DNA of 64,000 nucleotides from Plantactinospora mayteni. GTDB lineage: Bacteria > Actinomycetota > Actinomycetes > Mycobacteriales > Micromonosporaceae. The stretch's first letter is position 1. The number at the start of each line of letters is the position of its first letter. The stretch lies in assembly GCF_016862935.1 (NCBI RefSeq), contig NZ_BONX01000039.1:1-64000 (forward strand). Direction: 5' to 3'. Shown here piece by piece: positions 15,047-17,541 of the stretch. The notes below the pieces were generated by a model. It saw nothing but the letters and a program-made list of their open reading frames with translations, did no database searches and had not been told where the DNA came from. Both the position numbers and the translations under genes were made by a program.

Positions 15047-16717
15047 GTGTTCGAGAAGATCCTGATCGCCAATCGCGGCGAGATCGCGCTCCGGGTGGCC
15101 CGGGCCTGCCGTGAGCTGGGCGTACGTACCGTGGCGGTGTACTCGGTCGCGGACCGCGACTCGGCCGTCGTGCGGCTGGCCGACGAGGCGGTCTGCATCG
15201 GGCCGCCGGAGGCCCGGCAGAGTTACCGCAACGCCGCCGCCATCGTCGAGGCGGCCCGCCGGACCGGGGCCCAGGCCGTGCACCCGGGTTACGGGTTCCT
15301 CTCCGAGGACGCCGACTTCGCCGAGATCTGCGCCGACAACGGGCTCGTCTTCATCGGACCCCCGCCGGAGGTGATGCTCGCACTCGGCGACAAGGCGCGG
15401 GCCCGGGCGCTGATGCAGGACGCCGGCCTGCCGCTGCCACCGGGCAGCCTGGCGACCGTCGACACGGCGGCGAACGCGCGGGAGGTCGCCGACGAGATCG
15501 GCTACCCCGTGATCATCAAGTGTGCCGCCGGGGGCGGTGGACGCGGGATGACGGTGGTCTGGTCGGCCGACGAGTTCGGCGCGGCGTACGAGCGGACCAG
15601 GATCGCCGCGCACGCGGTCTTCGGCGACGACCGGGTCTACGTCGAGCGGTATCTCGTGCAGGCCCGGCACGTCGAGGTGCAGGTGCTCTGCGACGGGTAC
15701 GGGAACGGCGTACACCTGGGCACCCGGGACTGCTCGGTGCAGCGGCGGCACCAGAAGCTGATCGAGGAGGGCCCGGCCCCCGCCCTGTCCGCCGGTACCC
15801 TCGACGCGCTCGCCGACTCCGCGCTGCGCGGCGCGCTGCGGGCCGGCTACACCGGAGCCGGGACCTTCGAGTTCCTGGTCGACGAGGCCGAACGGTTCTC
15901 GTTCATCGAGGTCAACTGCCGGATCCAGGTCGAGCACCCGGTCACCGAGATGATCACCGGCCTCGACCTGGTGCACGAGCAGTTGCACATCGCGGCCGGC
16001 GTACCGCTGCGGCTGCGCCAGGAGGACGTCCGGATCTCCGGTGTCGCGGTGGAGTGCCGGGTCAACGTGGAGGACCCCGACCGGGGGTTCGCGCCGACCC
16101 CGGGCCGGCTGACCAGGTTCGTCCCGCCGAGCGGGCCGTGTACCCGGGTCGACACGCACGGCTACCCCGGCTACCTGGTCGGGCCGTACTACGACTCGCT
16201 GCTCGCCAAGGTGGTGGTCTGGGCGCCCGACCGGGATCTGGCGCTCGGCCGGATGGAGCGGGCGCTGCACGAGTTCGACGTCGACGGGCCGGGCGTACGC
16301 ACCACCATCCCGTTCCTGCGCCGGGTACTCGACGACGCGGGCTTCCGCAAGGGGCGGTACTCGACCGGGCTGGTCGACCGGCTGCTCGGCACCACCGACT
16401 CGGCGCCGACCGACCGGTTGTCGACTGACCGGTTGTCGGCCGCCTCGGCGCCGGGCGACCCGTCATCGACCGGCCGGGTGTCGACCGGCTCGGTGCCGAG
16501 TAACCCGGCGTCGAGCAACCCGGCGTCGACCGACCCCGACCGCGCTGGTCTCGCCGTTCCCGAAGCCTCCGCCGCTCCCGCCGCTCCCGCCGCTCCCGCC
16601 GCTCCCGCCGCTCCCGCCGCTCCCGCCGTTTCCGCCGTTTCCGCCGTTTCCGAAGCCTCGGCCGTCGCGCGGAGCGGCCCACCCACCACCGCCCACCTTC
16701 CGAGGAGGACCAGATGA
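15047..16717 (+). CDS. accC: biotin carboxylase of acetyl-CoA carboxylase
   Basis: 556 residues. The first 450 are a full biotin carboxylase: [33 protein letters not shown], the glycine-rich ATP loop [11 protein letters not shown], and [18 protein letters not shown]. It carboxylates biotin on the neighbouring BCCP with ATP and bicarbonate. From about residue 455 the protein continues in a Ser/Thr/Asp-rich and then Ala-Pro repeat tail that biotin carboxylases do not normally have. The stop overlaps the next start in ATGA. Confidence 0.94.
16571..16651. repeat. 9-bp coding repeat in the biotin carboxylase tail
   Basis: Six exact copies of GCCGCTCCC (16571-16624) are followed by three of GCCGTTTCC (16625-16651). 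They encode Ala-Ala-Pro and Ala-Val-Ser steps at the dispensable-looking C-terminus of AccC. Confidence 0.9.
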
Positions 16718-17541
16718 CCGTCAGGCACGAGGAACCGGCGTTGACCGGGCCGAACCAGCGGGAGCCGGCCCCGTCGCCGGTGACGGCGGCAGAGATCACC
16801 GCGATCCTGGTCCGGCACTGCGGGCTGGACGCAGCCGCCGCAGCCGCCGCGCCGAGCGCCTCGCTGGAGGAACTCGGGATGGACTCGCTGGCACTGCTCG
16901 AACTACAGGCGGTGGTGGCGGACCGCTACCGGGTCCAGCTTCCGGAGGAGGCCGGGCGGCTCAGCATCGCGGAGGTCGCCGAGGTGGTGGCCCACCAGTA
17001 CGAGCCGCAGGTCGCCCCCGCAGCCGGAACCGGCCGTCCGGGCCACACCGAGAACAGTGTGCTGATCGCGGCCCCGTCGCAACTGGTGTGGGACCTGACC
17101 AACGACGTCGCGGGCTGGACCGGGCTGTTCACCGAGTACCAGTCGGTGGAGATCATCGAGCGGCGCGGCGACACCGTACGGTTCCGGTTGACCATGTACC
17201 CCGACGAGAACGGGGTCACCTGGAGCTGGGTCAGCGAGCGTACCCCCGATCCGGCGCGCCGGGAGGTGCACGCGCACCGGGTGGAGACCGGGCCGTTCGA
17301 GTACATGCGGATCCACTGGCGCTATGCCGAGGCGCCGGGCGGCACCCGGATGACCTGGACCCAGGACTTCGAGATGCGCCCGACGGCACCGGTGAGCACC
17401 GCCCAGATGACCGACCGGATCAACGCGAACAGCCGGATCCAGTTGGACATCATCCGGGACAAGATCGAGCGGATCGCCGCCGAACTGGAGGCGAGCGCGC
17501 CGGCCTCGGCCGCGTCGACCAGCGGGGTGGGCGATGAGTGA
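16714..17541 (+). CDS. acyl carrier protein fused to aromatase/cyclase
   Basis: 275 residues. Residues 20-105 form an ACP with the phosphopantetheine site [12 protein letters not shown] (Ser58). Residues 112-265 form an aromatase/cyclase of the START/SRPBCC fold ([50 protein letters not shown]). No stop or frame change lies between them, and no other ACP or aromatase gene is in the window. The ACP would hold the growing poly-beta-ketone while the fused domain folds and aromatises the first ring. In the well-known type II clusters I can recall, such as whiE and tcm, ACP and aromatase are separate genes. It ends eight bases into the cupin gene. Confidence 0.93.

What the first reader, a model, noticed from the sequence alone, without database searches (positions are those of the whole stretch)
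16714..17541. ACP fused to an aromatase/cyclase in a type II PKS
One uninterrupted frame carries an ACP (Ser58) and an aromatase/cyclase fold. Type II systems are defined by separate proteins, and the window has no other ACP or aromatase. A tethered carrier-cyclase would present the poly-beta-ketone directly to its own cyclase and could change first-ring regiochemistry or chain release.
Basis: partly seen in the sequence, partly recalled or inferred. Interest (0 to 1): 0.75.

Follow-up and report, generated by a model that had tools for sequence, protein, structure and literature searches.

The report
Spore-pigment PKS: carrier protein fused to cyclase
One protein really does join the carrier that holds a growing pigment chain to the enzyme that folds the chain into rings, and this is not an oddity of one strain but a common form in Micromonospora, Salinispora and their relatives, although my searches found no paper that describes it.

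Summary
ORF 16714-17541(+) is one 275-aa frame: an acyl carrier protein (Ser58) followed by a TcmN/WhiE-type aromatase/cyclase. It is no sequencing artefact: at least 126 of 164 matching genomes of the window's family carry it, as do 60 of the best 80 named loci, all 60 Micromonosporaceae. A KS-alpha/KS-beta tree puts 34 of 34 window-type clusters in one supported clade; its nearest relatives have two separate genes. The cyclase's own start signal has been lost: 3 of 92 fused loci keep one, against 74 of 78 scored unfused loci. Similar fusions occur in other clusters, including a distant type II PKS of another family. The gene set is that of the whiE spore-pigment PKS, which papers suspect of making the dark spore pigment here. 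The cyclase is 58-60% identical to WhiE ORFVI and keeps seven of seven TcmN pocket residues checked, so ordinary C9-C14 closure is likelier than new regiochemistry. That tethering keeps carrier and cyclase together for cleaner chain capture is inferred. New variant of a known kind, moderate interest.

The parts
16714..17541 (+). ACP-aromatase/cyclase fusion, 275 aa
16774..17001 (+). ACP domain (about residues 21-96); phosphopantetheine Ser58 at 16885-16887
   Evidence: PF00550 residues 28-79; helices 25-36, 40-45, 58-72, 85-95; DSLA in 88 of 88 main-clade fusions
17002..17037 (+). Linker (about residues 97-108), low confidence and variable in length among relatives
   Evidence: pLDDT below 50 at 99-106; Ser-to-HTEN spacing 41 to 107 residues in 88 fusions, 42 in 55 of them, 52 in the window
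17038..17499 (+). WhiE ORFVI/TcmN-type helix-grip aromatase/cyclase domain (about residues 109-262)
   Evidence: 3tvr, 3tl1, 2kf2 at 58-60% identity, E 3e-59 by sequence and 4e-24 by fold for 3tvr; W135 Y142 W170 W172 S174 R176 R189 conserved
12527..14509 (+). Acetyl-CoA carboxylase carboxyltransferase, AccD- and AccA-like parts in one ORF (ORF opens at 12125; a true start near 12527 is my estimate)
   Evidence: PF01039, PF03255, PF17848
14506..15027 (+). Biotin carboxyl carrier protein
   Evidence: TIGR00531, PF00364
15047..16717 (+). Biotin carboxylase; its end overlaps the ATG of the fusion by 4 bases
   Evidence: PRK08591, PF02786
17534..18139 (+). Cupin (WhiE ORFII-like, number recalled)
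   Evidence: PF07883
18136..19407 (+). KS-alpha
   Evidence: PF00109/PF02801
19404..20720 (+). KS-beta (chain length factor)
   Evidence: PF00109/PF02801
20733..21143 (+). ABM-domain protein
   Evidence: PF03992
9919..10287 (-). TcmI-like late polyketide cyclase (WhiE ORFVII-like, number recalled)
   Evidence: PF04673 129.8 bits
12195..12530 (+). Second TcmI-like cyclase (ORF opens at 11934; domain at residues 88-189)
   Evidence: PF04673 138.9 bits
8382..9968 (-). FAD-dependent monooxygenase (WhiE ORFVIII-like, number recalled)
   Evidence: PF01494

Best explanation
The ORF is the fused ACP plus first-ring aromatase/cyclase (equivalent to WhiE ORFV + ORFVI) of the spore-pigment-type type II PKS of Micromonosporaceae. 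SHOWN by sequence: one open frame, recurring in a monophyletic group of clusters, with the cyclase's own start signal lost and the key residues of both halves kept. INFERRED: KS-alpha/KS-beta extend the poly-beta-ketone on Ser58's phosphopantetheine. The tethered cyclase, always present 1:1 and at high local concentration, captures the full-length chain and closes the first ring C9-C14 as WhiE and TcmN do; the TcmI-like cyclases, ABM, cupin and FAD enzymes then finish the pigment. The tether most likely improves capture and chain-length fidelity rather than changing regiochemistry. Whether the cyclase acts on its own ACP (cis) or a neighbour's (trans) is unknown.
For: Single frame with both domains. 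Same fusion in at least 126 of 164 matching family genomes, the window's own included, and in 60 of the best 80 named loci, all 60 Micromonosporaceae. 34 of 34 window-type fusions in one clade, SH-aLRT 100, on KS-alpha+KS-beta; 35 of 35 on one side of a branch in the cyclase tree. Nearest unfused relatives include the same order ACP-CYC-cupin-KSa-KSb (Kitasatospora L146, Actinophytocola L147). Start codon with Shine-Dalgarno-like site at the cyclase start: 3 of 92 fused against 74 of 78 scored unfused loci. dN below dS in 8 of 8 pairs for each domain. TcmN W28, Y35, W63, W65, S67, R69, R82 equivalents invariant in 20 of 20 aligned fusions. whiE-like gene set. Published (passages): whiE genes in all tested Micromonospora but one, possibly for black pigment (PMC5765111); a type II PKS in all strains, in a passage on S. 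arenicola, thought to make the black spore pigment (PMC12838356); S. tropica pks3 suggested as spore pigment, 18 of 25 proteins detected (PMC7888443). WhiE ARO/CYC is needed for full chain extension and poor ACP-ARO/CYC interaction limits domain swaps (PMC12664062).
Against: No biochemistry and no product structure; PMC7888443 itself says there is very little evidence for pks3's product, and I do not know whether the fusion is among the 18 proteins detected. AlphaFold pTM is only 0.59 (window) and 0.69 (Salinispora mooreana), so no defined ACP-cyclase docking is shown. Linker length varies by up to 66 residues, which argues against one precise channel geometry. Loci were gathered with the fused protein as query, which favours finding fusions. 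Cleavage after translation cannot be excluded.
Confidence: 0.72

Rival explanations
1. Neutral operon fusion: two adjacent genes lost the intervening stop and start, and the fused protein behaves just as the two separate proteins would.
For: ACP and cyclase genes are already adjacent in unfused relatives, with domain-to-domain gaps of about 19-31 nt in many Streptomyces loci. Linker length is very variable in part of the clade. The cyclase residues are unchanged.
Against: No loss was seen in the main clade among the loci in the tree (34 of 34). 50 of 59 named Micromonospora/Salinispora/Verrucosispora fusions keep exactly 42 residues from Ser to the cyclase, while distances from WxQDF to the C-terminus range from 46 to 74 (related sequences, not independent events; the printed n of 60 and the tail range include the window). 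Fusion appears again in at least two other places in the KS tree and in a distant type II PKS of another family.
Confidence: 0.28
2. The two halves work as separate proteins because the cyclase is also translated from an internal start or released by proteolysis.
For: Internal initiation and processing cannot be excluded from DNA alone.
Against: Only 3 of 92 fused loci have a start codon with a Shine-Dalgarno-like site at the cyclase start, one of them a likely frameshift (L162), against 74 of 78 unfused loci scored. In Salinispora mooreana the model leaves only 3 residues between the last ACP helix and the first cyclase strand.
Confidence: 0.08
3. The tether changes first-ring regiochemistry or chain release and so makes a different product class.
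For: A covalent tether could in principle restrict how the chain enters the pocket; no tool result supports it.
Against: Pocket residues are those of TcmN/WhiE, fold match to WhiE ORFVI and TcmN, surrounding genes match whiE.
Confidence: 0.07
4. Sequencing or assembly artefact.
For: One apparent fusion in another genus looks like that: S. tuirus L162 keeps the cyclase's own ATG and Shine-Dalgarno while the ACP frame runs out of register.
Against: The window-type fusion was found in 88 loci examined directly, only 2 of which keep a GTG with an SD-like site near the cyclase start.
Confidence: 0.01

Closest known systems
whiE spore-pigment type II PKS of Streptomyces coelicolor (ORFV ACP, ORFVI aromatase/cyclase; ORF numbers partly recalled)
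   Same: KS-alpha, KS-beta, ACP, TcmN-type ARO/CYC, cupin, ABM, TcmI-like cyclase and FAD oxygenase; cyclase 58-60% identical
   Different: ACP and ARO/CYC are one protein here; the order is ACC-[ACP-CYC]-cupin-KSa-KSb-ABM, not cupin-KSa-KSb-ACP-CYC as in most Streptomyces loci seen
Salinispora and Micromonospora spore-pigment clusters (S. tropica pks3)
   Same: Same fusion and gene order; L050 comes from a 5,183,331-base contig, the length given for S. tropica CNB-440 in PMC3462128
   Different: Most have almost no linker (42 residues from Ser) while the window has about 10 more. That L050 is pks3 is inferred from type and position only.
TcmN aromatase/cyclase (tetracenomycin)
   Same: Fold and pocket residues
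   Different: TcmN's cyclase belongs to a protein named as also a 3-O-methyltransferase (molecule name), not fused to an ACP
Didomain ARO/CYCs BexL and StfQ
   Same: Two-domain aromatase/cyclase proteins
   Different: Both of their domains are ARO/CYC domains; here one is an ACP
   Same: ACP and Polyketide_cyc domains in one frame, next to KS-alpha and KS-beta; also in G722 at 62% identity
   Different: Cyclase only 33% and KS-alpha 45% identical to the window's; no ACC, cupin or ABM relatives found in its 20 kb; found here, I know no published description

Membership tests
whiE-type spore-pigment type II PKS | KS-alpha and KS-beta genes | tested here: met
whiE-type spore-pigment type II PKS | TcmN/WhiE ORFVI-type aromatase/cyclase | tested here: met
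whiE-type spore-pigment type II PKS | Accessory genes: cupin, ABM, TcmI-like cyclase, FAD oxygenase (which whiE ORF each equals is partly recalled) | tested here: met
whiE-type spore-pigment type II PKS | ACP present with phosphopantetheine Ser | tested here: met
   present but fused, not free-standing; I treat fusion as a variant, not as a defining failure
whiE-type spore-pigment type II PKS | Product is a spore pigment | not testable with these tools
   only published suggestions for relatives
TcmN/WhiE C9-C14 aromatase/cyclase | Conserved pocket residues (TcmN W28, Y35, W63, W65, S67, R69, R82) | tested here: met
   numbering offset 107; invariant in 20 of 20 in A1; the choice of residues is recalled except R69 (PMC12664062)
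TcmN/WhiE C9-C14 aromatase/cyclase | C9-C14 first-ring closure | not testable with these tools
   needs enzyme assay
Didomain ARO/CYC (BexL, StfQ) | Two helix-grip domains in tandem | tested here: not met
   one helix-grip domain plus a helical ACP
Iterative type I PKS | KS and acyltransferase on the same chain as the ACP | tested here: not met
   KS-alpha and KS-beta are separate ORFs; Pfam finds only ACP and cyclase in the fusion

The most novel reading that the evidence does not exclude
The fusion is a step between type II and type I logic: the cyclase travels with the ACP during elongation at KS-alpha/KS-beta and threads the chain as it grows, so that chain length and first-ring closure are set together inside one didomain protein. 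Similar fusions arose at least twice more in Micromonosporaceae and once in a distant type II PKS of another family, so selection favours it.
Probability: 0.33. Interest if true: 0.6.

Novelty: new variant of a known kind. Interest (0 to 1): 0.42.

Why it matters
Poor interaction of ACPs with foreign aromatase/cyclases is named as a barrier to engineering aromatic polyketides (PMC12664062 passages). Here nature has joined the two covalently, in much of one bacterial family and again elsewhere, with linkers from about nil to some 65 residues longer. These are ready-made constructs for asking whether ACP-cyclase proximity controls chain length and first-ring closure. It may also explain why one survey of Micromonospora lists whiE KS, CLF, I, II, VI and VII but no ACP gene (passage in PMC5765111); VIII is not listed there either, so this is only a guess.

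Tried and rejected
Rejected: sequencing artefact (recurs across species). Rejected: unique to this strain. Rejected as the usual case: an internal start making a separate cyclase. The three family rows with '1 TGA' that suggested a split (G192, G096, G180) have no stop between the domains (L048-L050).

Mended on checking: I had first thought the fusion confined to Micromonosporaceae. Of the class sample I had scored 75 loci outside the family, 0 fused. Fetching the 8 listed outside-family rows that I had left out gave 5 separate, 2 without an adjacent ACP, and 1 fused (L234, G503), a distant relative. Total outside the family: 1 of 83 fused, 72 separate, 10 with no ACP detected beside the cyclase. 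Its ACP part only just passes Pfam's cut-off (21.5 bits against 20.8), but a second genome, G722, has it in one frame at 62% identity (13 of 200 genomes of that family match, most only in the cyclase part). For this I raised the novel case from 0.30 to 0.33 and lowered neutral fusion from 0.30 to 0.28.

Led nowhere: paper PMC1965521 is not held; phrase searches for 'ACP-cyclase fusion' and variants gave no description; model coordinates do not reach the script box, so the distance from Ser58 to the pocket mouth could not be measured; pTM 0.59 and 0.69 do not settle domain orientation. No call named the window's own species. L167 (another fusion) has no KS hit in its 16.7 kb and is not in the KS tree. 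The cyclase tree has 148 columns for 144 rows; its starred branches force only 1 change for fused, so separate origins rest on the KS tree, a quick search without bootstrap. L059 comes from a 69% complete assembly in 1080 contigs.

Counts: 126 of 164 is my hand copy of listed rows: 119 handles counted (118 whose match spans both domains, and G078, shown fused at locus level) plus 7 shown fused only at locus level (L051-L057). 28 of the 126 were checked at the DNA; 98 rest on the table's 'stops inside: none'. The table is not complete, so it is a lower bound. In one search, 105 unfused loci were given and 78 scored; 27 were dropped because the script's HT[DE]N motif was not found. The KS tree held 77 of 78 chosen loci (L167 dropped). 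In one search the group printed as n 60 includes the window by a string-comparison slip; without it 50 of 59. The loci came after the trees and the start-site count and are not in them.

Full report
WHAT IS THERE. The ORF 16714-17541(+) is a single frame of 275 codons starting at ATG behind a Shine-Dalgarno-like sequence; its ATG overlaps the end of the biotin carboxylase ORF by 4 bases and its own end overlaps the cupin ORF. Residues 28-79 match PP-binding (PF00550) and 118-228 match Polyketide_cyc (PF03364). The predicted structure has an ACP helix set, a low-confidence linker and a helix-grip domain. The best solved relatives of the second half are WhiE ORFVI of Streptomyces coelicolor (3tvr, 3tl1, 2kf2; 58-60% identity) and TcmN (2rer). 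TcmN's W28, Y35, W63, W65, S67, R69 and R82 correspond to W135, Y142, W170, W172, S174, R176 and R189 and are invariant in 20 of 20 aligned fusions (the residue list apart from R69 is recalled).

THE CLUSTER. Around it lie AccD/A, BCCP and biotin carboxylase (malonyl-CoA supply), cupin, KS-alpha, KS-beta and an ABM protein on the same strand, with a FAD monooxygenase and two TcmI-like cyclases (PF04673) nearby. This is the gene set of a whiE-type spore-pigment PKS (ORF equivalences partly recalled). The only PF00550 match on the contig is the fusion's own, and nothing else in the genome matches the fusion at E 0.001.

HOW COMMON. Of 300 sampled genomes of the same family, 164 match at 1e-20; at least 126 of them, the window's own included, carry the same single-frame fusion. 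Of the best 80 named loci (a capped list), 60 are fused, all Micromonosporaceae (53 Micromonospora, 5 Salinispora, 1 Verrucosispora, 1 Rugosimonospora); 19 have separate genes (Streptomyces, Kitasatospora, Actinacidiphila, Actinophytocola, Geodermatophilus, Actinomadura); 1, Streptomyces tuirus L162, is joined by what looks like a frameshift. In all, 205 loci were scored: 93 fused, 102 separate, 10 with no ACP detected beside the cyclase.

OUTSIDE THE FAMILY. Of 83 loci outside the family from a sample of 394 genomes of the class, 1 is fused. It is L234 (G503), a distant relative: one frame with an ACP-like part (PF00550 21.5 bits, barely over the cut-off) and Polyketide_cyc2, directly beside KS-alpha and KS-beta that are 45% and 35% identical to the window's. 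G722 of the same family has the same frame at 62% identity. So the architecture has arisen in at least one distantly related type II PKS too.

ORIGIN. A tree of KS-alpha plus KS-beta (77 rows, quick search, SH-aLRT only) places 34 of 34 window-type fused clusters in one clade (100); the nearest relatives outside it (Kitasatospora purpeofusca, S. xiaopingdaonensis, a second cluster in G001, G470/G316, Actinophytocola) are unfused, and several have the same gene order. So the order ACP-CYC-cupin-KSa-KSb probably came first and one fusion followed in an ancestor of this group. Two further fusions (L058 in G189, L059 in G005, the latter a 69% complete draft) sit among unfused clusters of the cupin-KSa-KSb-ACP-CYC order, in different parts of the tree; L167 (G251) has no KS hit nearby. 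The cyclase tree keeps the 35 main fusions on one side of a branch but is poorly resolved and does not by itself force separate origins.

IS IT REALLY ONE PROTEIN? At the cyclase start, 74 of 78 scored unfused loci keep a start codon with a Shine-Dalgarno-like site; only 3 of 92 fused loci do, one of them the likely frameshift. dN is below dS in 8 of 8 pairs for each domain. From Ser to the cyclase the spacing is exactly 42 residues in 55 of 88 main fusions, up to 107 in others, and in the Salinispora mooreana model only 3 residues separate the last ACP helix from the first cyclase strand.

HOW IT WORKS. Inference from these facts and from published work on WhiE: KS-alpha/KS-beta build the poly-beta-ketone on Ser58, and the attached cyclase takes the chain at once. 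A review notes that WhiE ARO/CYC is needed for full chain extension and that poor ACP-ARO/CYC interaction is a problem in domain swaps (PMC12664062, passages), so a tether would favour complete chains and clean first-ring closure. The wide range of linkers argues for a proximity effect rather than a rigid channel. Changed regiochemistry is unlikely given the pocket.

WHAT IS IN PRINT. Only passages found by term were read. PMC5765111 reports whiE-ks, clf, I, II, VI and VII in all tested Micromonospora but one and suggests black pigment. PMC12838356, in a passage on S. [quoted passage not shown] PMC7888443 says that S. tropica pks3 has been suggested as a spore pigment cluster on little evidence, and detected 18 of its 25 proteins; that L050 is this cluster is inferred, its contig of 5,183,331 bases having the length of S. 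tropica CNB-440 in PMC3462128. None of the passages seen in nine papers mentions the fusion, and full-text searches brought up no description (listings seen, not every paper read). Most subscription papers and all supplements were out of reach.

VERDICT. Real, recurrent in one main clade, and undescribed as far as my searches go, but most likely an ordinary spore-pigment enzyme pair in fused form. New variant of a known kind.

Noticed in passing
L234 1129-1908(-) and L235 (G503); G722:C224:64190-64963: A distant ACP-cyclase fusion beside KS-alpha and KS-beta in another actinomycete family, apparently an independent origin.
   Followed up: partly
window 16560-16660: The biotin carboxylase ORF ends in a low-complexity run of GCTCCCGCC-like repeats just before the fusion.
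   Followed up: no
window 12125-14509: AccD- and AccA-like parts of acetyl-CoA carboxylase lie in one ORF next to the PKS, a likely dedicated malonyl-CoA supply; ACC genes flank many of the relatives too.
   Followed up: partly
L167 (G251:C80), cyclase hit 8004-8459 on the minus strand: Another ACP-cyclase fusion beside ACC-like genes but with no KS-alpha or KS-beta hit in 16.7 kb.
   Followed up: partly
L058 (G189) and L059 (G005): ACP-cyclase fusions in clusters of the Streptomyces-like order, apparently independent of the main one.
   Followed up: partly
L162 (Streptomyces tuirus): ACP frame runs into the cyclase frame out of register while the cyclase keeps its own ATG and Shine-Dalgarno: probable frameshift, not a fusion.
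   Followed up: yes
L043 and L064 (both G001): One genome holds both a fused and an unfused copy of the cluster, a natural side-by-side comparison.
   Followed up: no
window 930-3248(-) and 3876-5042(-): Two neighbouring ORFs with DUF6807 domains.
   Followed up: no
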